Shown here: in pieces, positions 50,141-64,000 of the stretch
How the letters are laid out: each line of letters opens with the position of its first letter
How positions within the stretch are numbered: the stretch's first letter is position 1
NCBI GenBank assembly: GCA_028278505.1
Contig: JANQEG010000062.1
Coordinates: forward strand, 28,762 to 92,761
Source of the DNA: Rhodobiaceae bacterium
GTDB taxonomy: Bacteria > Pseudomonadota > Alphaproteobacteria > Rhizobiales > JAKPQE01
DNA length: 64,000 nt
Reading direction: 5' to 3'
Made by a program: the position numbers and the translations under genes
The notes under the pieces: model-generated
Databases searched by the model: none
The model's input: only the letters and a program-made list of their open reading frames with translations
What the model was told of the DNA's origin: nothing

Positions 50141-51817
50141 ATGTCAGAAGCTGCGCCGCAGAAACGCCGGGCGCGGGCAACGCCGAAGGGCCGACAGCTC
50201 GATCCGCTAGCGCGCGACGCGATCGCCGCGCTGCTCGGTGACCGGCCGCGGCGGCGCGATCTGCTGATCGAGCATCTGCATTTGATCCAGGACGCTTTCG
50301 GCCATCTCTCGGCGGCGCATCTGCGGGCGCTCGCCGAAGAGATGCGGCTGTCGCAGGCCGAAGTGTTCGAGGTCGCAAGCTTCTACCACCATTTCGATAT
50401 CGTGAAGGAGGGTGCGGCGGCGCCCGCCGCGATCACCGTGCGGGTCTGCGACTCCGTCTCCTGCATGCTCGCCGGCGCCGAAGACCTGATTTCGCGGCTC
50501 GACAGTCTCGTCGACCCGGCCCGCATCCGCGTGGTCCGGGCGCCGTGCATGGGCCGCTGCGCCGAGGCGCCGGCGGCGATGATCGGCAAGCGGGCGGTGG
50601 CGCCGGCCGAGGCCGCGGCGGTGGCCGATCTTGCCGCGCGCGGCGAGACGGCGGCGGAAATCTCCGCCTGTACCGGCCTTGACGCCTATCGGGCCGATGG
50701 CGGCTATGCGGTGCTCGATTCATGCCGGGCCGGCGCTCGCACGCCCGAATCGGTTATCGGCAAGCTGTCCGATGCCGGCCTGCGCGGCATGGGCGGCGCC
50801 GGCTTTCCGGCCGGCCGGAAATGGGCGATCGTCCGCGGTTTTGAGGCGCCACGGCTGGTCACCGTCAACGCCGATGAGGGCGAGCCGGGCACGTTCAAGG
50901 ACCGCCACTATCTGGAGACCGATCCGCACCGGGTGCTCGAAGGGGCGCTGATCGCCGCCTGGGCGGTCGATGCGGAGCGGATATATATCTATCTGCGCGA
51001 CGAATATCCGGCGATCCACGCGGTCTTGACCAAAGAGATCGCCGCCCTCGACGCCGCCGGCCTGACGGCCGGTTGCGGTATCGAACTCAGGCGCGGCGCC
51101 GGCGCCTATGTCTGTGGCGAGGAGTCGGCGATGCTGGAATCGATCGAAGGCAGGCGCGGCCTGCCGCGCCACCGGCCGCCCTATATCGCCGAGACCGGCC
51201 TCTTCGGCCGGCCCACCCTCAACCACAATGTCGAGACGCTCTACTGGGTGCGCGACATCGTCGATCGCGGTCCGGACTGGTTCGCCGATCAGGGCAGGCC
51301 GGACCATAAGGGCCTGCGCTCCTATTCGGTCTCGGGGCGGGTCGCCGCGCCCGGCGTGAAACTGGCGCCGGCCGGGATTTCCTTGAACGAGCTGATCGCC
51401 GACCAGTGCGGCGGCATGGCCGACGGTCACACGCTTGCCGCATTCCTGCCGGGCGGCGCATCGGGCGGCATCTTCCCGGCGTCGATGGCCGATCTGCCGC
51501 TCGATTTCGGCACGTTCGAACCCCATGGCGGGTTCCTGGGCAGCCATGCGGTCGTCGTGCTTTCCGACCGCGACGATCTCAAAGCGGTCGCGCTCAATCT
51601 GTTGAAATTCTTCATGCACGAAAGCTGCGGCCAGTGCACGCCGTGCCGGGTCGGGACGGAAAAGATGGTCGCGCTGCTCAAAGCCGGGAACTGGGACGAA
51701 GCACTCATCGGCGATCTGGAGGCGGTGATGCGCGACGCCTCGATCTGCGGCCTCGGTCAGGCCGCGCCCAATCCGGTGCGCAGCGTTCTGAACTTCTTCA
51801 CGGAGGCGCCGTCATGA
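50141..51817 (+). CDS. NAD-dependent formate dehydrogenase beta subunit (NuoE-NuoF fusion)
   Basis: NuoE-like 2Fe-2S N-term (VRVCDSVSCMLAGAE...RVVRAPCMGRC) then NuoF (GLRGMGGAGFPAGRKW, NADEGEPGTFKDRHYLETDPHRVLEG, ESCGQCTPCRVGTEK). Confidence 0.93.
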   Translation: MSEAAPQKRRARATPKGRQLDPLARDAIAALLGDRPRRRDLLIEHLHLIQDAFGHLSAAHLRALAEEMRLSQAEVFEVASFYHHFDIVKEGAAAPAAITVRVCDSVSCMLAGAEDLISRLDSLVDPARIRVVRAPCMGRCAEAPAAMIGKRAVAPAEAAAVADLAARGETAAEISACTGLDAYRADGGYAVLDSCRAGARTPESVIGKLSDAGLRGMGGAGFPAGRKWAIVRGFEAPRLVTVNADEGEPGTFKDRHYLETDPHRVLEGALIAAWAVDAERIYIYLRDEYPAIHAVLTKEIAALDAAGLTAGCGIELRRGAGAYVCGEESAMLESIEGRRGLPRHRPPYIAETGLFGRPTLNHNVETLYWVRDIVDRGPDWFADQGRPDHKGLRSYSVSGRVAAPGVKLAPAGISLNELIADQCGGMADGHTLAAFLPGGASGGIFPASMADLPLDFGTFEPHGGFLGSHAVVVLSDRDDLKAVALNLLKFFMHESCGQCTPCRVGTEKMVALLKAGNWDEALIGDLEAVMRDASICGLGQAAPNPVRSVLNFFTEAPS

Positions 51818-54564
51818 CCGCAAAGATCGCGTTTTCCCTCGACGGCCGATCCGTCACCGCCGCGCCGGACGAGAGCCTCTGGCAGGTGGCGAAGCGGGAA
51901 GGCAACACCATCCCCCATCTCTGCCATAAAGACGCGCCCGGCTACCGCGCCGACGGCAATTGCCGCGCCTGCATGGTCGAGATCGAGGGCGAGCGGGTAC
52001 TCGCCGCCTCCTGCCAGCGCAAACCGGCCGAGGGGATGGTGGTCAGGACCGACACCGCACGGGCTGAAAAGGCGCGGCAAATGGTGTTCGAACTGCTGCT
52101 CGCCGACCAGCCGGCAAGGGCGCAAGCGCATGATCAGGCGGCGCCGTTCTGGGCCTGGGTCGCGCAAATGGGTGTTCAGCCGACCAACCGGTATGCGCCG
52201 CGCCCGGCGCCGGCGCCCGATCCCTCGCATCCGGCAATGGCGGTCAATCTCGACGCCTGCATCGCCTGCGGGCTGTGCGTGCGCGCCTGCCGCGAGGTCC
52301 AGGTCAACGACGTCATCGGCATGGCCGAGCGCGGCCACCATGCCATGCCCGTATTCGATTTCGACGATCCGATGGGCGCCTCGACCTGCGTTGCCTGCGG
52401 CGAATGCGTCGCCGCCTGCCCGACCGGGGCGCTGATGCCGAAATCGATCGTCGATGAAAAAACCGGCGTCGGGTCGCGCGGCGCCGATGAAACGGTGCGG
52501 TCGGTCTGCCCCTATTGCGGGGTCGGCTGCCAGATCGATTACAAGATCCGCGACGGCAGCATCGCCTATGTCGAAGGCGCCGACGGCCCGGCCAACGAGA
52601 ACCGGCTCTGCGTCAAGGGCCGGTTCGGCTTCGACTATATCCATTCACCGCTGCGCCTGACCCGGCCGCTGATCCGCAAAGACGGCGCGGAAAAGGGCCT
52701 CAACGTCGACCCGGCCGATACGCTGACCCATTTCCGCGAGGCGAGCTGGGAGGAAGCGCTTGATGTCGCCGCCGCCGGGCTCGCTAAGCTGCGCGATGAG
52801 GCCGGCGGCCGCGCGATCGCCGGATTCGGCTCGGCCAAATGCTCCAACGAGGAGGCCTATCTCTTCCAGAAGCTGATCCGCACCGGCTTCGGCCACAACA
52901 ATGTCGATCATTGCACGCGGCTCTGCCACGCCTCCTCGGTCGCTGCGCTGATGGAGGGCATCGGCTCGGGCGGCGTCACGGCGCCGTTCAACGAATGCGC
53001 CAATGCCGATTTGATCATCGTCATCGGCGCCAATCCGGGCGAGAACCATCCGGTGGCGGCGACCTATTTCAAGCAGGCGGCCAGGCGCGGCGCCAAGCTG
53101 ATCGTCATGGACCCGCGCGGCCAGGCGCTCGAACGCCACGCCACTTATATGCTGCAATTCCGGCCCGGCGCCGATGTCGCCCTGCTCGATGCGATGATGA
53201 ACGTGATCGTCGAAGAGGACCTCTACGACACCCAGTACATCCAGGCGCATACGGAGGGCTTCGCCGCACTCAAGGACCATCTCGCCGGGTTCACGCCGGA
53301 GAGGATGGCGCCGGTCTGCGGCATCGATGCAGGGACGATCCGCGACGTGGCCCGCGCCTATGCGCGCGCCGACCGGGCGATCATCTTCTGGGGCATGGGC
53401 GTCTCCCAGCACGTGCACGGCACCGACAATGCCCGCTGCCTGATTTCGCTGGCCATGATCACCGGCCATGTCGGCCGCCCCGGCACCGGCCTGCATCCCT
53501 TACGCGGCCAGAACAACGTCCAGGGCGCCTCCGATGCCGGGCTGATCCCGCTCGTCTTCCCGGACTATGCCAAGGTCGGCGAGGCCGCCCACCGCGAACG
53601 GTTCGAAAAGCTCTGGGGGGCCCAACTCGACCCGCAGCCCGGGCTGACCGTGGTCGAGATCATCAATGCGGCGGCGCGCGGGCAAATCCGCGGCATGTAC
53701 ATCATGGGCGAGAACCCGGCGATGTCCGATCCCGATGCCGGCCACGCCCGTGAAGCGCTGGCTGCGCTCGATCATCTCGTCGTCCAGGACATCTTTATGA
53801 CCGAGACGGCGATGTTCGCCGACGTGGTGCTGCCGGCGACCGCCTGGCCGGAGAAGACCGGGACGGTCACCAACACCAACCGCCAGGTGCAGATGGGCCG
53901 CAAGGCCGTCGATGCGCCCGGCGAGGCACGCGCCGACTGGGCGATCACCGTCGACCTTGCCCGTCGCCTCGGCCTTGACTGGGCTTACGAGCACCCGGCC
54001 GACGTCTTCGCCGAGATGAAGCGGGCGATGCCGTCGCTCGACAACATCACCTGGGAACGGCTGGAGGCGGAAAACGTCGTCACCTATCCGTGTCCGGCGC
54101 CCGACCATCCGGGCGAGGGCGTCGTCTTCGGCGATGGTTTTCCGACGGCGTCGGGCCGCGCCCTTCTGGTGCCGGCCGCCGTCACCCCGCCGGCCGAACT
54201 GCCGGACGAGACCTATCCCTTCGTGCTGACCACCGGGCGCCAGCTCGAACACTGGCATACGGGCGCGATGACCAGGCGGGCCGCGGTGCTCGACCGGCTC
54301 GAGCCGGGTCCGGCGGCGAGCCTCCATCCGGCGACGTTAAAGCGCCTCGGCATCAGTGCCGGCGACGAGATCACCGTGGAGACGCGGCGCGGCGCGATTA
54401 CGCTCATGGCGCGGGCCGATACGGCGCTGCAGGAGGACATGATCTTCATTCCGTTCGCCTATGTGGAGGCGGCCGCCAACATCCTGACCAATCCGCAGCT
54501 CGATCCTTTCGGCAAGATCCCCGAGTATAAGTTCTGCGCGGCACGGATCGCCCCGGCCGCCTGA
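51814..54564 (+). CDS. formate dehydrogenase alpha subunit (molybdo/tungsto-bis-MGD enzyme)
   Basis: N-term 2Fe-2S ferredoxin domain, 4Fe-4S CIACGLCVRACREVQ / CVACGECVAACPTGAL, VCPYCGVGCQ, NNVDHCTRLCHASSV (catalytic Cys). Starts at ATG 51814; the ORF-track extension is spurious. Confidence 0.95.
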   Translation: MTAKIAFSLDGRSVTAAPDESLWQVAKREGNTIPHLCHKDAPGYRADGNCRACMVEIEGERVLAASCQRKPAEGMVVRTDTARAEKARQMVFELLLADQPARAQAHDQAAPFWAWVAQMGVQPTNRYAPRPAPAPDPSHPAMAVNLDACIACGLCVRACREVQVNDVIGMAERGHHAMPVFDFDDPMGASTCVACGECVAACPTGALMPKSIVDEKTGVGSRGADETVRSVCPYCGVGCQIDYKIRDGSIAYVEGADGPANENRLCVKGRFGFDYIHSPLRLTRPLIRKDGAEKGLNVDPADTLTHFREASWEEALDVAAAGLAKLRDEAGGRAIAGFGSAKCSNEEAYLFQKLIRTGFGHNNVDHCTRLCHASSVAALMEGIGSGGVTAPFNECANADLIIVIGANPGENHPVAATYFKQAARRGAKLIVMDPRGQALERHATYMLQFRPGADVALLDAMMNVIVEEDLYDTQYIQAHTEGFAALKDHLAGFTPERMAPVCGIDAGTIRDVARAYARADRAIIFWGMGVSQHVHGTDNARCLISLAMITGHVGRPGTGLHPLRGQNNVQGASDAGLIPLVFPDYAKVGEAAHRERFEKLWGAQLDPQPGLTVVEIINAAARGQIRGMYIMGENPAMSDPDAGHAREALAALDHLVVQDIFMTETAMFADVVLPATAWPEKTGTVTNTNRQVQMGRKAVDAPGEARADWAITVDLARRLGLDWAYEHPADVFAEMKRAMPSLDNITWERLEAENVVTYPCPAPDHPGEGVVFGDGFPTASGRALLVPAAVTPPAELPDETYPFVLTTGRQLEHWHTGAMTRRAAVLDRLEPGPAASLHPATLKRLGISAGDEITVETRRGAITLMARADTALQEDMIFIPFAYVEAAANILTNPQLDPFGKIPEYKFCAARIAPAA

Positions 54565-54713: not shown

Positions 54714-55799
54714 ATGGCGAAAATCCGTTTCGATGAAATCGAAAAGAACCTGGAGGGCGTGCGGATCGAAATCGCCGACTCGGTTGAGAAGCAGCAGCAG
54801 ATCGACGAAAGGCTGAACAAAATCCTCGGCGAGACCGAACTGAAGGAGGTGGTGGTCGACACCGCCGATGCGGATTTCGAGGCGGTGATGAAGAACAGCG
54901 AGGCGGCGCAGGCCAACATCGCCGCGCTGATCCACGGCCTTGACGAAATCACCCGCGCCTTCGGCTCCGAATTCGAACAGATGTCGAAGCCGACATTCGG
55001 CGAAACGATGATGGGCTGGTTCTCGAAGCGCAAATCCGAAGAGATGCGGTCGGCGCGCGTCCGCGAGGCCGATATCCGCACCAATCTCAACGAACTGATC
55101 CGCAAATCGGATGTCATCCGCACCCTGCTCGAAGAGCAGCTCGCCATTCTCGACGACCGCAACGACAGGACCCGGAGCGCGCATTCCAGCGTGCTCGACC
55201 GCGCCCGGGAGCTCGCCGGCGAGATCGACGGGTTGCAGGGGCGGCTCGACGAACTCGGTCCGAACATCGCCGAGATCGATGCCCGGCTTGCGGACGCGAC
55301 CGGCGAGGCGCTGAAGGCGATCGAGGCGGAGCGGGCGCAAGCCGCGATCGACTACAACGATGCCCAGGCCAAGCTGCAGGAACTGACGGCCGTGCAGCAG
55401 TCGCTAGAGCGCTACGCCGCGCAATACGAGAACTACGTGGAAAGCCTGACCAAGCAGTCGGCGGCCCAGCGCACGCTGATCCACAAGCTCGAAATCGACA
55501 CCGAACAGCGCTCGGTGATGTATGACGCGCTGACCGAATCGATCCGCACCAGCGAGCAGCAGAACGTCGCCCACCGCATCGACGATGTCGGCCGCGAAAC
55601 CGACGCCCAGGCCGATGCGATGATGACCCAGATCGGCATTTCCTCTGAAAACCGGATCGTCGGCATGATGGAGAGCCACGAGATCTTCATGAAGCGTACC
55701 GCGGAAATCCGCAAGAAAGGCGAGATCGCCAACGCCGAATTCACCCGCCGGTTTTCAGAGATTCTGGAAAAGGTCGATACGGGTAAGTATGTCGGCTAA
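54714..55799 (+). CDS. uncharacterised coiled-coil protein
   Basis: 361 aa, mostly heptad-rich charged helices (MAKIRFDEIEKNLEGVRIEIADSVEKQQQIDERLNKIL...); RBS gaggagg at 54701-54707; no family recognised with certainty. Confidence 0.82.
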   Translation: MAKIRFDEIEKNLEGVRIEIADSVEKQQQIDERLNKILGETELKEVVVDTADADFEAVMKNSEAAQANIAALIHGLDEITRAFGSEFEQMSKPTFGETMMGWFSKRKSEEMRSARVREADIRTNLNELIRKSDVIRTLLEEQLAILDDRNDRTRSAHSSVLDRARELAGEIDGLQGRLDELGPNIAEIDARLADATGEALKAIEAERAQAAIDYNDAQAKLQELTAVQQSLERYAAQYENYVESLTKQSAAQRTLIHKLEIDTEQRSVMYDALTESIRTSEQQNVAHRIDDVGRETDAQADAMMTQIGISSENRIVGMMESHEIFMKRTAEIRKKGEIANAEFTRRFSEILEKVDTGKYVG

Positions 55800-55832
55800 C
55801 AGATGCATCGTCCACTGCGGAACCGCCGGCCC

Positions 55833-55970
55833 AAAGCCCTCTCCCCTCTGGGGAGAGGGTTGGGTGAGGGGTCGTCATATGACAAAAGCCAATCACCCTC
55901 ACCCGACGTCGACCAGCGGCTCAGCTTCGCTTCACCGGGTCTCCGTATCCCTCTCCCTCAAGGGAGAGGG
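55833..55970. repeat. ~135-bp intergenic dispersed repeat, copy 1
   Basis: aaagccctctcccctctggggagagggttgggtgagggg...tcagcttcgcttcaccgggtctccgtatccctctccctcaagggagaggg; closely matches 57320-57452. Confidence 0.85.
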
Positions 55971-56050
55971 AAAGATCCGTTGTCGCGTCGGATGCAATAG
56001 TACTCCAACGGCGTGGTGCGTCCTTAGCGACGCCGAACGGACATTGCCCG

Positions 56051-57094
56051 ATGACGCCTAGGACCGACACCGCCCGGGCGCTCTATTTCCGCACGCTGGA
56101 GCGGGTCTCCGGCGTGCTCGCGGGCTTTTCGGAAGGCACGTCGGCGGAAACGTTTTCGCGGCTAAGGAATCTCTTCCGGCTGATCGATCTGCGCACCGCG
56201 GCCGGCGATCCGCCCAAGACCGACAGGATCAATTCCGGGTTTCCGATCCTGAAGGAAGTGGTCTCGATCGCCAATGACCGCAAGCACGGCCTTCCCGGAA
56301 ATCCGACCGCCGATCCGGAGCGGCTGCGCACCGACATGCTCGACCAGATGCTGGCGCGGCGGCGGTTGCCGAGCCCGCATATGATCGCGGAGATGGCGCG
56401 GGCGGTCTATGCGGCGGCGCTGAACCAGGATCCCGACATTGTGTTCATGTCCGATGTCCGCAATTCGCATAGCTGGATGAAGGCCGGGAACGCCTATTGG
56501 ATGTGGTGGGACCATTGGGACGGGCCGACCTCGCGGCCGGTCCGCTGCGCCGCCGTGTTCGACGTCAACAGCGACGATGTGCACAACAAGGATCGGCTGG
56601 AACCGGCGATCGTCCGGGTCGCCGAAATTGCGGCCGCCTATACCGGCATCGGCTTCTTGTTGTCGACGCTCGCCGGCGAGATCGACGAGGGCGTCGAAGA
56701 CCTGCGGCTGAAATCGCTGAAGCGGGTCGCGGTCGGTCCGTTCGTGTCGCCGGTGTTTTCCGAGATCGAGGACCCGATCGCCGGTCTCGTCGCCGATGCG
56801 GACGATCTCGACGATGCCTGGGCGCTGCGCTGGGTGATCGAGACGATCGTCTCGGCCGGCACGACGCGAGTTGCCGGTGGGTTCTTCTCGCGGGCGCGGA
56901 CGCGAGAGAAATTCGTCATCACCAAGCGCGACCCGGCCTGCGAAAGCCGCGGCATTACCGAATTCGAATCGAATATCGCCATGCCGCACGGCATTTATCA
57001 GCGGGTGAGCGACAGCAGCGAGCGTCGGACGCTGCTCGCCGGGTCCAGGCCCTGCGTGGTGACCCCGGCCGGCCGGCTGATCGAGAACGTCTGA
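56051..57094 (+). CDS. uncharacterised protein
   Basis: 347 aa (MTPRTDTARALYFRTLERVSGVLAGFSEGTSAETFSRLRNLFRLIDLRTAAGD...); clean start, codon usage like neighbours; family unknown. Confidence 0.82.
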   Translation: MTPRTDTARALYFRTLERVSGVLAGFSEGTSAETFSRLRNLFRLIDLRTAAGDPPKTDRINSGFPILKEVVSIANDRKHGLPGNPTADPERLRTDMLDQMLARRRLPSPHMIAEMARAVYAAALNQDPDIVFMSDVRNSHSWMKAGNAYWMWWDHWDGPTSRPVRCAAVFDVNSDDVHNKDRLEPAIVRVAEIAAAYTGIGFLLSTLAGEIDEGVEDLRLKSLKRVAVGPFVSPVFSEIEDPIAGLVADADDLDDAWALRWVIETIVSAGTTRVAGGFFSRARTREKFVITKRDPACESRGITEFESNIAMPHGIYQRVSDSSERRTLLAGSRPCVVTPAGRLIENV

Positions 57095-57139
57095 ATGGTG
57101 ACAGCGATGAGTAGCCGGCGAAATATGGTTGAGGATTGC

Positions 57140-57281
57140 CTCACCCCTCCCCCTTGCGGGGAGGGGTCGGGGGTGGGGGTTAAAAGAGAAGACAGCAACG
57201 CTGCTGATCTGCGAACATTTTGGTATTACCCCCACCCGGCCGGCGCTGACGCGCCGTCCACCCTCCCCACAAGGGGGAGGG
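57140..57281. repeat. GC-rich palindromic intergenic repeat
   Basis: tcacccctcccccttgcggggaggggtcgggggtgggggtt ... acccccacccggccggcgctgacgcgccgtccaccctccccacaagggggaggg: terminal palindromes and inverted gggtggggg/cccccaccc. Confidence 0.75.
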
Positions 57282-57319
57282 TTGTTTGGGCGGAATACCC
57301 CCGGATGCCAACACTCTCC

Positions 57320-57452
57320 AAAGCCCTCTCCCCTTGGGGGAGAGGGTTGGGTGAGGGGGCTAAGAAAAAAACCATCACCCTCACCCGACTTCGACCAACG
57401 GTTCAGCTTCGCTTCACCGGGTCTCCATACCCCTCTCCCTCAAGGGAGAGGG
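57320..57452. repeat. ~135-bp intergenic dispersed repeat, copy 2
   Basis: aaagccctctccccttgggggagagggttgggtgaggggg...ttcagcttcgcttcaccgggtctccatacccctctccctcaagggagaggg; direct orientation relative to copy 1. Confidence 0.85.
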
Positions 57453-57508
57453 CATATCTGGCAGGCGCCGACATCCGGACCCGAAAGAACTTGAGGTAGC
57501 GCGACACC

Positions 57509-59401
57509 ATGGAAAGCCGGTCGGTCCGCATTCCCGAGGCGCGCATCCGCGAGCATTACGACACAGCGCTCGGCATCATGGCCAATGCGGAGACGGTGGA
57601 GGCTGCGCCGCAAACCGCGCAGAAAGGCCGGATCCGCTATGTCAGCCCGCTCGGCAGCGGCGGGGTGGGACCGAAAAAGCGCAGCCGCACCGATTTCGCC
57701 GCGGTGCTTGCCAGCGACGACGACACGCTGCTTTCGCCGGAGCGCCACGCCATTCTCTATGAGACGCGACGGGCGATCGCCGTCGGGCTGGCGATCAGCG
57801 AGTATTTCGTCGAGCCGCTCGGCTATCTCGATCTCGGCGCCCGCAACAAGGCGGGCACGCTGCACGGCGCCGATCTCGACCGGTTCCGGGCACTTGTCCG
57901 GGCGAAGGCGCTGGTCGCGACCTTTGCCGCCGCCGCCCACCTTTTCGCCATGCGGGCGACGGCACCGACCGGCGCGCCGGCGCCGCTCGGCGAGGTCCCG
58001 AATGACAGCACCAATGACGCGCTCGGCTGGTTCGTAAGCCGGCTTGCGAGCGCCGTCAAAGGCGTCGGCGACGACGCCATCGACGAGACGGTCGCCCGGC
58101 TCGCCGCCGACGCTATGGACGCGGTCGAGGCCGACGCCCATTCGGCCATGGGTGCCGATATTCCGGCGTTCGAGGCGGTCGCCTATGCGGTCGAGGCCGA
58201 CGACTTCCATTTGCACGGTTTTGCCCGGCCCGGCTCGGCCGCCAAGCGGCGGCGGGTCGAAATCCCGTTCAAGCAGCCGCACGAGGTGGTCGGCAACCAC
58301 ATCGCCAAGGCGCAGGCGCTGAAGCTCGCCCGCATGCTCGCCTCCTACGATTTCGAGGCACGCAAGAACCCGTTCGTCGAACTCGGCGGCTTCATCTTCA
58401 CCGTCATGGGCGACGGCTATCCGGGCACCGGCAAGACGACGCTGATCCAGATGATCGCCGGGCTCGTCAATTCCTATTGCGAGATGGCCGGCTACCCGTT
58501 CCATTTCGAGAATTTCGGCATCGACCAGATCTCGGAGTATCAGGGCAAGTCGGGCCAGAACTGCAAGGCGTTCATCGAGCGGGTGCTCGATCCGCGCGCG
58601 ATCGCCTTCGGCACCGTCGACGACATCGACCAGGTCGCCGGCAAGCGCGACGACCATCGATCCTCCGGCGGCCAGCAGGAGGTCACCGCGGTTCTGATGG
58701 AATCGCTGTCGGGGACCGGAACCGTGATCCGCGGCAATTGCGCCTTCGGCATGTTCTCCAACTATCCCGAAAAGGTCGACGACGCGCTGCGCCAGCGCGC
58801 CGGCGCTCGCTGGCTCGTCGACGGGCCGCAGACCCGCGACGACTATATCGACATCTTCCACCTGCTGATCGGCAAGAACCATTCGATCGCGCTCGGAAAG
58901 CACGATCTTTATGCGGCTCAAGAACTGAAGAAGATGGTGGCGGAGAACTATGGCCGCCATTCGGTACCGCAGGAGCATGGCCTGCGCGATGTCTGGGACG
59001 ATGTCGTCGCCGATATCGGCTCGCCGGACACGATCGCCGATATCGGCCAATATCTGCACCAGATCAAGGAACGCGAACCGCGCTTCACCGGACGGGCGAT
59101 CAAGAACATCACCGATGCGATCAAATACCGGGCGATGGATGTGGACCTGCCGGACGACTGGTTCGAGGCGCCGGAGGCCTATCTGCGCCTGCCCTATGAG
59201 CAGAAGCTCGCCATGATCGGCGAACTGCGCCGGCCGATCACCCTGGACATGGTCATCCAGGAGATCAACCGCTATGCGGATTCCGAGTTCCGCTATTCCG
59301 GCAAGACCGACGAGGCGGCGATCTCGGCCCAGGTTCGCGACATGAAGATCCGCACCGCGGCGAATGAGCGCTTCCGCCGCGACTTCGGGGATGACGGCTG
59401 A
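57509..59401 (+). CDS. AAA+ ATPase of uncharacterised family
   Basis: Walker A GYPGTGKTT (about 58414-58440), downstream AFGTVDDIDQ, FGMFSNYPEKVDDALRQRAGARWLVDGP; about 300-aa N-terminal region of unknown function. Confidence 0.88.
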   Translation: MESRSVRIPEARIREHYDTALGIMANAETVEAAPQTAQKGRIRYVSPLGSGGVGPKKRSRTDFAAVLASDDDTLLSPERHAILYETRRAIAVGLAISEYFVEPLGYLDLGARNKAGTLHGADLDRFRALVRAKALVATFAAAAHLFAMRATAPTGAPAPLGEVPNDSTNDALGWFVSRLASAVKGVGDDAIDETVARLAADAMDAVEADAHSAMGADIPAFEAVAYAVEADDFHLHGFARPGSAAKRRRVEIPFKQPHEVVGNHIAKAQALKLARMLASYDFEARKNPFVELGGFIFTVMGDGYPGTGKTTLIQMIAGLVNSYCEMAGYPFHFENFGIDQISEYQGKSGQNCKAFIERVLDPRAIAFGTVDDIDQVAGKRDDHRSSGGQQEVTAVLMESLSGTGTVIRGNCAFGMFSNYPEKVDDALRQRAGARWLVDGPQTRDDYIDIFHLLIGKNHSIALGKHDLYAAQELKKMVAENYGRHSVPQEHGLRDVWDDVVADIGSPDTIADIGQYLHQIKEREPRFTGRAIKNITDAIKYRAMDVDLPDDWFEAPEAYLRLPYEQKLAMIGELRRPITLDMVIQEINRYADSEFRYSGKTDEAAISAQVRDMKIRTAANERFRRDFGDDG

Positions 59402-60708
59402 TGGAAAAGCTGATCCGCGAGGGCCTGCGCTTCGGCGGGCTGGTGCGCGTGTCCGCGCCGCACCTGATCGAGCGCTATAACGCCGCGCTCGAAGCGTTCC
59501 GGCTGCCGCGGGTCGCGCTTGACGACTTCCATCTCGACGCCTCGGGCTATTCGCTGGAGGTCGCGGATGCGCTCGGCGACATGGACTATCTCGATCCAAA
59601 CGGCATCAACCGGCGTTTCATCATCGTCACCCCGGAGCAGCGCAACGCGCCGCTGATCGCCACCGCGTTCTCCGTCGATGCCGCGCTCTTTGAGCTCTTC
59701 TATGCGAACAACCAGGCCGCCATTGAAGCGCTGACGCTGAAGGATGCGGTCTATGGTGAGATCGAGAACCTCGTTTTCGATGTCCGCACCCCGGCCGACA
59801 TCGTCTCGATCCGCAAGGTCAGTTTCGGCGTCTACACGCCGAGCCGGCTGCTCGCCGATGCGCGCAGCCTCGAGGCGCTGACCGAGCGCTTCATGACCGA
59901 GACCGACGGCTGGCGCGACGCGACCTTGATGGCGGAGATCGTCGAAGGCGCAAAACGCTGCGGCGACATAAGGGCCAACGGCATCATCCCGGAAAAGCTC
60001 GAATTCGACTGGCCGGCGGCGTTTTTCTCCACCCATTTCGGCGGCACTTATGTGTTCCGCTATGGCAACAGCGTGCTTCTGGTCGGCGATCCCGAGCGAT
60101 TGCAGCCGCGGACGCGAAACATGCTCGTTATTGCTCGCGGCGACGGCGGCCAGATCCTCGATGCACTCGACACATTCGGGCTGATCGAGCCGTTCAATCC
60201 GCGCTGGCTCGTCGACTCCGGCATGCTGGCGCAGCGTTTTCGCATGGCGGTCGCCGCTATTCTCGGCCGCAACGGCGTCGCGTTTGCGCCGCAGGAGATC
60301 ATGGATGAGCGCTATCTCAACCGCTTGGTCCAGGAGTCGATCGATGCGATGCAGGCCGATCCGGCGTTCCGGGCGATTTCCGGGCTGCGCGGCGTCATCG
60401 GCAATGACGGCGATGCGGCCGGCATTGAGGCGACGCTCGAGCCGGCAACCAAGCTGATCTTCCGCCGCGCCCTGCCCGAACATCCGGGCGTCTGGGAGGC
60501 GAACCGGCTGATCGCGGAATTCTCCGAATTCGACGTCGTCGCCCTCTTCATCCTCAACAAGCCGCGCTTCTACGAGGTCTATGAGGCGATGTCGGCGCCG
60601 ATGCGGACTTTTGCGGTCGAGGCCGTCAAGACGGTCTACATGCCCGACGGGGTCGAGGCATCACGCCGCAAGGACGAAGTCAAGGCGCGCCTTTATGGTG
60701 CGCACTGA
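59401..60708 (+). CDS. DUF6638-like protein of unknown function
   Basis: 435 aa (MEKLIREGLRFGGLVRVSAPHLIERYNAALEAFRLPRVALDDFHLDASGYSLEVADALGD...); TGATG 1-nt overlap with the AAA+ gene. Family name from recall, not verified. Confidence 0.75.
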   Translation: MEKLIREGLRFGGLVRVSAPHLIERYNAALEAFRLPRVALDDFHLDASGYSLEVADALGDMDYLDPNGINRRFIIVTPEQRNAPLIATAFSVDAALFELFYANNQAAIEALTLKDAVYGEIENLVFDVRTPADIVSIRKVSFGVYTPSRLLADARSLEALTERFMTETDGWRDATLMAEIVEGAKRCGDIRANGIIPEKLEFDWPAAFFSTHFGGTYVFRYGNSVLLVGDPERLQPRTRNMLVIARGDGGQILDALDTFGLIEPFNPRWLVDSGMLAQRFRMAVAAILGRNGVAFAPQEIMDERYLNRLVQESIDAMQADPAFRAISGLRGVIGNDGDAAGIEATLEPATKLIFRRALPEHPGVWEANRLIAEFSEFDVVALFILNKPRFYEVYEAMSAPMRTFAVEAVKTVYMPDGVEASRRKDEVKARLYGAH

Positions 60709-60755
60709 GACAATGGTGGGGGGACTGGGCCCGGTTCGAACGAAGGGGACGAGCC

Positions 60756-61931
60756 ATGTTTGATCCGCTGATCGACTTCATCAAACGCATTTTCGCGGCC
60801 GTGCGCACGTTTCTGCGTTCGCTTTTTCTGCCGGCCCCGAAAGCTAAGCCGGACGGCACCGCGCCGCGCTTGCGGCTGATCCGCTACGGCGTCAAGATCG
60901 GCATCGTGCTGCTCATCCTCGCCTATATCGTGCCCTTCATCTGGCACGCGCTGTTGGTGCGCGATTTCAACCTCGCCTATCCGCAGCAGGTGCTGAAGCC
61001 CTCGCAGATGGTCTCGGCCGACGAGCAGGTCGACCCGGCCGGCGGCGGCGCGACCAGCCGCTCCTGCGGCCGTTCGCAGATCGTCGACATGCAGGTCCAT
61101 CTGATCCGCTTCCTCACCGAGACGAACGCCTGGGTGCCGGCGATGCCGCAGACCAAGATCGGCCTTTTTGGCATTGACTGGGAAAACACGCCGTATCTCG
61201 ACAACAAGGCATCGTTCCAGCACGGCGTGCTGTTTGCCCTGCGCCGGGTTTCGATCGAGCTTGCCGACGTGCTCGGCCGGGTGCGCGGCACCTCCGAGGC
61301 CGACCGTGACCTGCAGGCGGCGCGCGGCGCGCTGCAATTCGATTCGGAGACCTGGTGGTTCAACCCGTTCGATCCGCAGCGGCCTTTCGGGCCGACGACG
61401 CCGTCGGGCCGCTACTACCGCAATGCCATCGGGACATTCGAGCGCTTCAACGACCGGCTGGAGCAATGCGACGCCCTGTTCGATGCCCGCGCCGACAATC
61501 TGCGCTCGTTCCTGTCGCGGATCACCGCCGATCTCGGCTCGGCCGCCGATGCGCTGGCCAAGCGCTCGATCGGCACCCGCTACGACCCGGCCACCGATAC
61601 CTTCGTGCCGGGCGAGGGCAATGACCGCGGCTGGTTCGATTTCCGCGCCGACAATTATTTCAACGAGGCGCTGGGCCAGGTCTACGCCTATCACGGCCTG
61701 TTGCAGGCGGCGCGGCTCGACTTCGCCGAGGTCATCAAGGTGCGCGGCCTCGACGACATCTGGAACCGCATGGAGGCGCATGTGGCGCAGGCGGCCGCCC
61801 TGTCGCCGTTGATCGTCTCAAACGGCCGCGAGGACGGTTTTCTGATGCCCGACCATCTGGCGGTGATGGCGCAGGCGGTGCTGCGCGCACGCGCCAACAT
61901 GACCGAGATCCGCGATATCCTTGATCGGTAG
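60756..61931 (+). CDS. DUF2333 family membrane-anchored protein
   Basis: Single N-terminal TM (LIRYGVKIGIVLLILAYIVPFIWHALLVRDFNLAYPQ) and RYYRNAIGTFERFNDRLEQCDALFDARADNL; family name from recall. Confidence 0.8.
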   Translation: MFDPLIDFIKRIFAAVRTFLRSLFLPAPKAKPDGTAPRLRLIRYGVKIGIVLLILAYIVPFIWHALLVRDFNLAYPQQVLKPSQMVSADEQVDPAGGGATSRSCGRSQIVDMQVHLIRFLTETNAWVPAMPQTKIGLFGIDWENTPYLDNKASFQHGVLFALRRVSIELADVLGRVRGTSEADRDLQAARGALQFDSETWWFNPFDPQRPFGPTTPSGRYYRNAIGTFERFNDRLEQCDALFDARADNLRSFLSRITADLGSAADALAKRSIGTRYDPATDTFVPGEGNDRGWFDFRADNYFNEALGQVYAYHGLLQAARLDFAEVIKVRGLDDIWNRMEAHVAQAAALSPLIVSNGREDGFLMPDHLAVMAQAVLRARANMTEIRDILDR

Positions 61932-62110: not shown

Positions 62111-62431
62111 TCAGACCGTGCCTTCGATCCACTCGACGAGCCGGCCCTTCGGCTGCGCGCCGACCTGCATGGCCGCCGGCTTGCCGTCCTTGAACAGGAT
62201 CAGCGTCGGGATCGAGCGGACGCCGTATTTGATCGCCGTTGACGGGTTCTCGTCGATATTGAGCTTGGCGACCTTGACCTTGCCCGCCATTTCGGTGGCG
62301 ATTTCCTCAAGCGCCGGCGCGATCATCTTGCACGGTCCGCACCACTCCGCCCAGAAGTCGACGACGACGGGCTCGGTGGAATTGATGACATCGTTGTCGA
62401 ACGATGCGTCGGTGGTGGTTTCGGTCGCCAT
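62111..62431 (-). CDS. trxA: thioredoxin
   Basis: 106 aa, [24 protein letters not shown]...[29 protein letters not shown]. Confidence 0.97.
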
Positions 62432-62489
62432 TCTGGTTCCTCTGACGCTTACGAGGACGCTTCGCCCCCAAGATTGTCCCGCCTGTTAG

Positions 62490-64000
62490 TTAAGAACGCC
62501 ACCGGTCAGCGTCAAGCGCCGCCTGTTCGTCCCCGTCGTCGTCCAGTACGGCGTCGAGAAGCGCCGCCGGGATCGGCACGAGCTTCGGCGCGGCGGTGAA
62601 GATCAGCGCCGCCGTGATCGTCCGGTCGGGATAGAGATCGCCGAGAAGCCGGTAATAGATCGCCAGTTGAAGGAGGCTGGCGCGATCGGCCTCAGCCGCC
62701 GTATCGGGCACCCGCCTTGACGTCTTGAAATCGACAACCAGCACGCCCGTATCGGTGACCGCGAGCCGGTCGACGCGGCCGCCGGCGCGCACCCTCCGGC
62801 CGCCGATCTCGACACTGCCGTAGAGGTCGACCTCGGCGCGGCTGCCCGGCGCGAAGGCGGCGGCGAACGCCGGCTCGGCCATGATCCGCAGGGCTTCCTC
62901 CAGAACAGCCGCGCGTTCGCCGTCATCGAAGTCACCGGCGACCGCGACAAGATATCGCGCGCCGGCTCGCGCCCGCGCCGGTTCCGGCAATTCCGGCAGG
63001 GATTCGAGCAGCCGGTGGATCAGCTCGCCGCGCCGCGCCGCCCGCCGCCGCGCCGGCGCGCTTATATCCCGGCCGGTCGGCGCCGGCCCGGTTGCGGTGA
63101 TCCGCGCCTCGGGCATGGCGGCCGGCACCGGCGCCTTCAGCCACGGCGGCGGCGGTTCGGCGGCCGTGGCAGCGGCCGCCGCCTTCGGCTTGACCGGGCG
63201 CCGCGGCGTCGTCCGGAAGACGAGCGCCGGCTCGTCGGCGCCGGGGAAGGGTTTTGGCGTGCACCGCGCCTCAAGGCCGTTCCTCACCAGCGCATACCAG
63301 GATCGTTCGGGCACGCCGGTCTTGCCGACATGCCCGCAGACGGTGAGCCGGTCGCCGGCCCGGGTCATCGCCACATAGAGCAGCCGCCGGTATTCCTCTT
63401 CATCGCGCTTTCGGGCAGCGGCGATCGCCGCCTCGTGCAGGGCGGTGCGGTCGGCCTTGCCGGTGTTCCACAAGATCGTCTCGGCCGCGCGGTCGTCCGA
63501 CGGCGCCAGCTTCAACACCACCGGGTCGTTGCGCGGGCCCGGTGGCGAGCAGGTGTCGGCGAGAAAGACGATCGGCGCCTCAAGCCCCTTTGCGCCGTGC
63601 ACGGTCATCACCCGGACCTCGTCGCGCCTTCTGTCCTGGTCGCGGGCGATCACCGGTGCGGTGGCGCCGAGCCAGGCGAGAAAGCGCTGCAACGTCGCCG
63701 GCGCCGTCCGTTCGAAGTCAAGCGCGAGCGCCAGGAATTCATCGAGCGCCTCCTCGGCCTCGCGGCCGAGACGGGCAAAGAAGGCGCGGCGGCCGCCGTC
63801 GCGGCCGAGCACGCGGGCGAAGAACTCATAAGGCGGCATGGTGTCGGCGATGCGCCGCCAGTCGGCCAGCCGGTTCTGGGCCGCGGCAAGCACCGGATCG
63901 TCACCGGCCGCCGATCCAAGCGCCGCCCACAGGCTCCCGGTCCGGCCATGGGCGAGGCGGAAGAGATCGTCCTCGGAAAGGCCGATCAGCGGGCTTTTCA
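62490..64000 (-). CDS. addA: double-strand break repair helicase AddA (C-terminal part, runs off window)
   Basis: VMTVHGAKGLEAPIVFLADT helicase motif, YVAMTRAGDRLTVCGH motif VI, C-terminal nuclease VLVVDFKTSRRVPDTAAEADRASLLQLAIYYRLLGDLYP; frame stays open to 64000 (KSPLIGLSEDDLFRLAHGRTGSLWAALG). Confidence 0.95.
   Translation of the reverse strand, partial: KSPLIGLSEDDLFRLAHGRTGSLWAALGSAAGDDPVLAAAQNRLADWRRIADTMPPYEFFARVLGRDGGRRAFFARLGREAEEALDEFLALALDFERTAPATLQRFLAWLGATAPVIARDQDRRRDEVRVMTVHGAKGLEAPIVFLADTCSPPGPRNDPVVLKLAPSDDRAAETILWNTGKADRTALHEAAIAAARKRDEEEYRRLLYVAMTRAGDRLTVCGHVGKTGVPERSWYALVRNGLEARCTPKPFPGADEPALVFRTTPRRPVKPKAAAAATAAEPPPPWLKAPVPAAMPEARITATGPAPTGRDISAPARRRAARRGELIHRLLESLPELPEPARARAGARYLVAVAGDFDDGERAAVLEEALRIMAEPAFAAAFAPGSRAEVDLYGSVEIGGRRVRAGGRVDRLAVTDTGVLVVDFKTSRRVPDTAAEADRASLLQLAIYYRLLGDLYPDRTITAALIFTAAPKLVPIPAALLDAVLDDDGDEQAALDADRWRS

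What the first reader, a model, noticed from the sequence alone, without database searches (positions are those of the whole stretch)
54714..61931. Uncharacterised AAA+ ATPase cluster: coiled-coil protein, orphan ORF, AAA+ ATPase, DUF6638-like, DUF2333 membrane protein
Five co-directional genes encode a heptad-rich 361-aa protein, a 347-aa protein with no recognisable family, an AAA+ ATPase with a clear Walker A (GYPGTGKTT) and a large N-terminal region, a DUF6638-like protein translationally coupled to it (TGATG), and a single-pass membrane DUF2333 protein. An ATPase plus a membrane anchor, a coiled coil and unknown partners suggests a multi-component envelope-associated machine (remodelling, stress or anion resistance, or assembly). 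To my knowledge no function is assigned to it. Basis: motifs and gene coupling are seen; family names are from recall; function is inference. Best candidate for a novel system in this window.
Basis: partly seen in the sequence, partly recalled or inferred. Interest (0 to 1): 0.78.

Follow-up and report, generated by a model that had tools for sequence, protein, structure and literature searches.

The report
Unnamed four-gene AAA+ machine
A set of four neighbouring bacterial genes - a motor-like ATPase and three partner proteins of unknown function, one with a predicted shape unlike any solved protein - is inherited as a unit across rhizobia, other alphaproteobacteria and some vibrios, so it is very probably a real, undescribed protein machine whose job is still unknown.

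Summary
Four form a tight unit: coiled coil (P1), orphan (P2), AAA+ ATPase (P3), DUF6638 (P4). In 299 sampled genomes of the phylum, P2 and P4 occur in exactly the same 20, always beside P1 and P3; in 199 genomes of the order all 29 with P3 have P4. Vibrio replicons carry the same four. DUF2333 (P5) is not core: it is in 68/299 genomes, mostly without the others; DUF1523 takes its place in 11 sampled loci, and the Vibrio loci have neither.

P3 has the Walker A, sensor-1, Arg-finger and Y-x-G pore-loop motifs of classic AAA ATPases, but Asp where Walker B normally has catalytic Glu. P4 is predicted confidently (pLDDT 94) with no PDB fold match. Four Rhizobium-type genomes lost P2-P3-P4 together; they keep DUF2333 and a decayed P1 that has lost residues 276-312, elsewhere strongly conserved.

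Best reading: an AAA+ machine (P2-P3-P4) acting on coiled-coil P1, with swappable inner-membrane partners. The unit is well supported; the mechanism is inference. ESCRT-III, TelA, MoxR/vWA and defence membership were tested and not met.

The parts
54714..55799 (+). P1: coiled-coil protein, 361 aa, core component; strong AGGAGG-type ribosome site just upstream
55539..55649 (+). P1 residues 276-312: segment conserved where P2-P3-P4 are present and lost where they are absent; candidate contact site
56051..57094 (+). P2: orphan protein, 347 aa, core component; same 20/299 genomes as DUF6638
57509..59401 (+). P3: classic-type AAA+ ATPase, 630 aa, with about 290 N-terminal residues of unknown family; core component
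58415..58441 (+). Walker A, GYPGTGKTT (P3 residues 303-311)
58538..58552 (+). YQGKS, position of pore loop 1 (P3 residues 344-348)
58613..58630 (+). Walker B, TVDDID (P3 residues 369-374), Asp at the usual catalytic Glu position
58760..58762 (+). Sensor-1 Asn418
58790..58810 (+). Arg-finger region RQRAGAR (P3 residues 428-434)
59401..60708 (+). P4: DUF6638, 435 aa, core component; confident model (pLDDT 94) without PDB fold match; start overlaps P3 stop (TGATG)
60756..61931 (+). P5: DUF2333, 391 aa, lineage-specific membrane neighbour, not core; single TM at residues 50-68, Cys104 and Cys238 invariant
55831..55970 (.). Palindromic repeats in the P1-P2 gap
57318..57452 (.). Second copy of the palindromic repeats, in the P2-P3 gap

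Best explanation
P1-P2-P3-P4 is one undescribed AAA+ protein machine. P2, P3 and P4 form the ATP-driven module: P3 probably assembles as a ring and grips its substrate through the Y-x-G pore loop, while P2 and P4 act as dedicated adaptors or cofactors. Its main client or scaffold is the coiled-coil protein P1, contacted through residues 276-312; the module would assemble, disassemble or reshape P1 (or P1 bound to something else) at the cytoplasmic face of the inner membrane. In most lineages a membrane protein with a periplasmic domain (DUF2333 or DUF1523) is the local membrane partner. Shown: the four genes are inherited as a unit, P3 has the AAA motifs, P2-P3-P4 are lost together, and the 276-312 segment of P1 is lost where they are lost. 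Inferred: ring assembly, P1 as client, membrane location, and any physiological role (envelope maintenance or remodelling is the best guess).
For: Unit: P2 and P4 in the same 20/299 genomes, P1 in those 20 plus 4; P3 in 29/199 genomes of the order, all with P4, the two extra P4 genomes being multi-contig assemblies. Same order in about 96 loci from Rhizobiaceae, Devosiaceae-like, Rhodobacteraceae-like and Vibrio genomes, in different surroundings. Distances between loci correlate at 0.92-0.99 among P1-P4 but 0.72-0.86 with P5. AAA motifs including an invariant Y-x-G pore loop aligned with Rpt2. Loss of P2-P3-P4 at one and the same site in four genomes, with the 276-312 segment of P1 lost. Swappable membrane neighbours DUF2333/DUF1523.
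Against: Walker B is DD, not DE, so ATP hydrolysis may be slow and P3 could be a switch rather than a motor. The Vibrio loci have no DUF2333 or DUF1523 beside the core, and no DUF1523 on that replicon at all, so a membrane partner is not a fixed feature. The four reduced loci are close relatives and may be one loss event; their P1 is eroded throughout. The conserved hydrophobic-basic motif of P1 (GWExFVGxFSK) is not clearly amphipathic. No direct evidence exists for any contact between the proteins.
Confidence: 0.45

Rival explanations
1. P3 is a chaperone-type AAA+ activator or assembly factor (working like CbxX, NorQ or MoxR proteins) that, with P2 and P4, matures or reactivates a soluble complex of which P1 is a scaffold; the membrane neighbours are incidental.
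For: No transmembrane segment in P1 or P3, and no good one in P2 or P4; DUF2333 is mostly found without the core and P5 distances follow the others less well; Vibrio loci lack a membrane neighbour.
Against: No enzyme target is encoded consistently beside the unit; no vWA domain in the partners; two different membrane families occupy the same place in different lineages.
Confidence: 0.25
2. It is an anti-phage or other conflict system with an AAA+ ATPase and passenger effectors.
For: Patchy distribution; the P3-P4 and P2-P3 junctions of some genomes carry DUF559 endonuclease, Fic or antitoxin genes.
Against: Same chromosomal site and co-inheritance throughout Rhizobiaceae; passengers vary between close relatives; only weak ATPase-domain or coiled-coil hits in PADLOC; no viral or phage relatives.
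Confidence: 0.1
3. P1 is a divergent TelA-like protein and the unit gives toxic-anion or related stress resistance.
For: Similar length and helical make-up by eye only.
Against: No PF05816 match in P1 of the window genome or in 35 P1 members; profile-profile comparison with 12 TelA proteins gave probability 0.1%.
Confidence: 0.04
4. P1 is an intracellular member of the helical pore-former (ClyA/YaxA-like) fold group, loaded or restrained by the AAA+ module.
For: The best PDB fold matches of the P1 model are tripartite alpha-pore-forming proteins.
Against: No match at E <= 0.001, TM-scores 0.3-0.4, model pLDDT 75; no hydrophobic tongue or transmembrane segment. Such matches are common for long helix bundles.
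Confidence: 0.04

Closest known systems
Classic AAA ATPases (Vps4/katanin/fidgetin-like, proteasomal Rpt, AFG2)
   Same: PF00004 domain, Walker A, sensor-1 Asn, arginines after it, Y-x-G pore loop 1 aligned with Rpt2.
   Different: DD in Walker B instead of DE; a large N-terminal region with no Pfam match and no MIT domain; three dedicated partner genes not known with any classic AAA protein.
ESCRT-III-like systems (PspA/Vipp1/Snf7 with Vps4-like AAA), including the bacterial PspA-AAA+ neighbourhoods described in PMC11237479
   Same: A helical coiled-coil protein encoded with a classic-type AAA ATPase and, often, a membrane protein.
   Different: P1 matches neither PspA/IM30 nor Snf7 in any of 35 members; no ESCRT-III entry among the 50 best fold matches shown; P2 and P4 have no counterpart there. 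At most it works like these; it is not a member.
MoxR/vWA and CbxX-type AAA+ activation systems
   Same: AAA+ protein with dedicated partner genes.
   Different: AAA domain is PF00004; no von Willebrand A domain in any partner; P4 has an unmatched fold.
Pfam DUF6638 (PF20343) and DUF2333 (PF10095)
   Same: P4 and P5 pass the curated cut-offs.
   Different: Both are families of unknown function; DUF2333 is mostly found without this cluster.
TelA (PF05816)
   Same: Length and helical composition only.
   Different: No sequence or profile similarity detected.

Membership tests
Classic AAA ATPase (PF00004) | Curated Pfam match and Walker A | tested here: met
   44.5 bits against a cut-off of 21.2; invariant GxPGTGKTT
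Classic AAA ATPase (PF00004) | Walker B with catalytic Glu (hhhhDE) | tested here: not met
   Invariant DDID in 12 aligned members, aligned with DEID of Rpt2
Classic AAA ATPase (PF00004) | Sensor-1 Asn, Arg fingers, aromatic-x-Gly pore loop | tested here: met
   N418, R428/R430/R434 and Y344-Q-G346 invariant; pore loop aligned with Rpt2. Sequence only
Classic AAA ATPase (PF00004) | ATP-dependent ring assembly and hydrolysis | not testable with these tools
   needs biochemistry
ESCRT-III/PspA-Vps4 remodelling system | Polymer subunit with PspA/IM30 or Snf7 homology | tested here: not met
   Neither family among the Pfam matches of 35 P1 members at E <= 0.05
ESCRT-III/PspA-Vps4 remodelling system | ESCRT-III fold of the helical subunit | tested here: inconclusive
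   P1 model has a long helical hairpin (pLDDT 75); no ESCRT-III entry among the 50 best PDB matches shown
ESCRT-III/PspA-Vps4 remodelling system | MIT domain on the ATPase | tested here: not met
   No MIT match in P3 at E <= 1
TelA toxic-anion resistance | PF05816 homology of P1 | tested here: not met
   profile-profile probability 0.1%
MoxR/vWA AAA+ system | vWA-domain partner | tested here: not met
   No vWA match in P1, P2, P4 or P5
Known anti-phage defence system | Match to a described defence family | tested here: not met
   Only weak ATPase-domain or coiled-coil hits in PADLOC; no viral or phage relatives
DUF6638 | PF20343 gathering score | tested here: met
   237.6 bits against a cut-off of 27
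DUF2333 | PF10095 gathering score | tested here: met
   97.2 bits against a cut-off of 22

The most novel reading that the evidence does not exclude
A bacterial membrane-associated polymer-handling machine that arose independently of ESCRT: a classic-type AAA ring, with two protein families new to structural biology (P2, P4) as adaptors, threads residues 276-312 of a coiled-coil scaffold P1 to assemble or disassemble it at the inner membrane, with DUF2333 or DUF1523 as interchangeable receptors.
Probability: 0.2. Interest if true: 0.85.

Novelty: new variant of a known kind. Interest (0 to 1): 0.62.

Why it matters
A whole four-protein machine is conserved across ecologically and agriculturally important bacteria (Sinorhizobium, Mesorhizobium, Rhodobacteraceae-like genomes, vibrios) with no function assigned. 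One subunit (P4) has a confidently predicted fold unlike anything in the PDB, and another (P2) belongs to no known family. The natural loss of P2-P3-P4 in some Rhizobium-type genomes, together with segment 276-312 of P1, gives a specific contact site to test at once. If P3 handles P1 at the membrane, this would be a bacterial parallel to AAA-driven remodelling of coiled-coil polymers.

Tried and rejected
TelA relationship of P1: rejected (PF05816 searches, profile-profile; my first TelA extraction picked wrong frames and was redone). PspA/ESCRT-III membership: no sequence match, structure inconclusive. Pore-former-like fold of P1: weak, generic helix-bundle matches. P4 fold search against the PDB and viral models: nothing. 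Profiles of P1, P2, P4, P5 against PDB sequences: nothing meaningful; the P3 profile gave no match at E 1e-4, although the single sequence matches classic AAA chains. Defence: no support. Genes between P3 and P4 as functional parts: rejected, they differ between close relatives. Amphipathic-helix test of a P1 motif: unconvincing. Promoter scan: nothing above chance. Literature: nothing on DUF6638; one incidental DUF2333 mention beside an hcp3 locus; a ChvI-binding DNA fragment inside S. meliloti SMc02733 (PMC3687685), which by counting genes between choX and shmR might be P3 of this locus, but that mapping is from memory and unverified.
Full report
OBSERVATION. The window (G000:C121:28762-92761 of a 3.35-Mb, 150-contig, 85%-complete assembly) contains the five genes as described. 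P1 is a 361-aa heptad-rich protein, P2 a 347-aa orphan, P3 a 630-aa AAA+ protein, P4 DUF6638 and P5 DUF2333. P3 and P4 overlap as TGATG.

THE UNIT. DUF6638 occurs in 20 of 299 sampled genomes of the phylum. Reading 20 kb around each showed P1-P2-P3-P4 in the same order in all 20. An alignment of 12 P3 sequences brought in 80 named loci: Mesorhizobium, Sinorhizobium, Rhizobium, Hoeflea, Shinella, Aminobacter, Roseitalea, a Devosiaceae bacterium and others. The Devosiaceae and Hyphomicrobiaceae loci are closest to the window (P3 and P5 about 60%). Vibrio vulnificus and V. parahaemolyticus replicons of about 0.9 Mb carry the same four genes. Across the loci the order is constant, and genes that are missing lie beyond contig ends. 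Independent searches with P1, P2 and P3 gave: P2 in exactly the same 20/299 genomes as P4 (Fisher p 1e-31), P1 in those 20 plus 4, and P3 in 29/199 genomes of the order, all with P4. Of the two P4-only genomes, both are draft assemblies of 220-300 contigs. Pairwise distances between loci correlate 0.92-0.99 among P1-P4; shared species history accounts for some of that, but P5 correlates less, 0.72-0.86.

WHAT IS NOT PART OF THE CORE. DUF2333 is in 68/299 genomes, only 9 of them with the core. Elsewhere it stands in unrelated surroundings. In 11 of the sampled loci (family f17, which looks like Rhodobacteraceae, one other family of the order, and one genome of another class) the place after P4 is taken by DUF1523, often with an 88-aa protein with two predicted transmembrane segments. 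In the three such genomes tested, DUF1523 occurs only at this locus. The Vibrio loci have neither. The P3-P4 junction often carries unrelated small genes (DUF559 endonuclease, DUF3825, a weak DUF4145/HEPN-like match, antitoxin-like ORFs), and the P2-P3 junction a Fic gene; the types differ between relatives, so I treat them as passengers.

ANATOMY OF P3. The ATPase domain (from about residue 300) has invariant Walker A, Y-Q-G-K-S in the position of pore loop 1 of Rpt2 (Y-L-G), sensor-1 Asn418 and L-R-Q-R-x-G-A-R. Its Walker B reads D-D-I-D in all 12 aligned members instead of D-E-I-D. Because the Glu usually activates water (established AAA+ knowledge), hydrolysis may be slow; this counts against a simple fast motor. 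The N-terminal 290 residues match no Pfam family.

P1, P2, P4. P1 is predicted as a helical protein with a long hairpin (mean pLDDT 75). Its best PDB matches are alpha-pore-forming proteins with TM-scores of 0.3-0.4 and none at E <= 0.001, which I read as generic long-helix similarity. P2 has no detectable relative outside the unit. P4 is predicted with high confidence (pLDDT 94, pTM 0.88) and has no PDB match better than E 1.5 and no viral match better than E 0.75. At Foldseek sensitivity it is therefore a fold without a solved representative; predicted cellular proteins could not be searched. P5 has one transmembrane segment preceded by a basic N-terminus, which by the positive-inside rule puts the conserved domain in the periplasm; its only two Cys residues (104, 238) are invariant, fitting a disulphide there (inference).

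A NATURAL LOSS EXPERIMENT. In four genomes of the same family (G043, G107, G253, G265) the same chromosomal site (choline transporter - thymidine kinase - P1 - P5 - formate-tetrahydrofolate ligase) lacks P2, P3 and P4 altogether. P5 there is still about 55-66% identical to full loci, whereas P1 is down to about 24-31%. The segment of P1 matching residues 276-312, 95% identical among full-locus Rhizobiaceae and 58% identical to the distant f17 loci, is reduced to 10%; three of the four sequences lack 22 residues of it. This is what one expects if that segment serves P2, P3 or P4. The caveat is that the four may descend from one event and that P1 is relaxed along its whole length.

MECHANISM. 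I propose (confidence 0.45) that P2-P3-P4 form an ATP-driven module acting on P1 through residues 276-312 at the inner face of the membrane, with DUF2333 or DUF1523 as local membrane partner. The unit, the motifs, the joint loss and the segment loss are shown. Ring assembly, threading, P1 as client, membrane location and physiological role are inferred. The rival that P3 is a chaperone-type activator of some soluble complex is not excluded (0.25). A defence role (0.1) has little support: no viral relatives, no defence-family match, a conserved site and co-inheritance in Rhizobiaceae.

KNOWN SYSTEMS. P3 is a classic AAA protein by Pfam and most motifs but does not meet the Glu criterion in Walker B. 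The whole works like, at most, AAA-coiled-coil systems such as Vps4-ESCRT-III; the literature reports PspA next to AAA+ genes in some bacteria and suggests ATP-dependent membrane remodelling (PMC11237479). It is not a member: no PspA/Snf7 homology, no MIT domain. TelA and MoxR/vWA membership were tested and not met.

VERDICT. A real, conserved and, as far as the library shows, undescribed machine.

Noticed in passing
window 55831-55970 and 57318-57452: Near-identical palindromic repeats (CCCTCTCCC..GGGAGAGGG; an 87-nt unit 91% identical) in the two gaps around P2; all four exact copies of the palindrome in the window are here. They lengthen gaps that are 20-40 bp in relatives.
   Followed up: partly
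window 58619-58630 (P3 residues 371-374): Invariant Asp in place of the Walker B catalytic Glu in all 12 aligned P3 sequences.
   Followed up: partly
L037 6303-7133; L025 8305-9129; L027 8603-9316; L123 10073-10477: Fic, DUF3825, DUF4145/HEPN-like (weak) and DUF559 endonuclease genes sit inside the cluster in single genomes or small clades; the P3-P4 junction seems to be an insertion-tolerant spot.
   Followed up: partly
L142, L143, L144, L145: Reduced loci: decayed P1 next to well-conserved DUF2333, with P2-P3-P4 missing, at the same chromosomal site as full loci.
   Followed up: yes
L122 and L125 (Vibrio replicons of about 0.9 Mb): The core lies on chromid-like replicons directly upstream of an mfd gene.
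   Followed up: no
window 50141-54564 and 62111-63998: Flanks look like an NAD-linked formate dehydrogenase operon upstream (named from recall), and a convergent thioredoxin and a UvrD/AddA-like helicase downstream; not seen beside the unit in the sampled relatives that were checked.
   Followed up: no
L146, L147, L148, L150, L151, L152 (DUF2333 loci): In other alphaproteobacteria DUF2333 stands without the core, in several cases near a conserved 160-190-aa gene: a possible separate partner.
   Followed up: no
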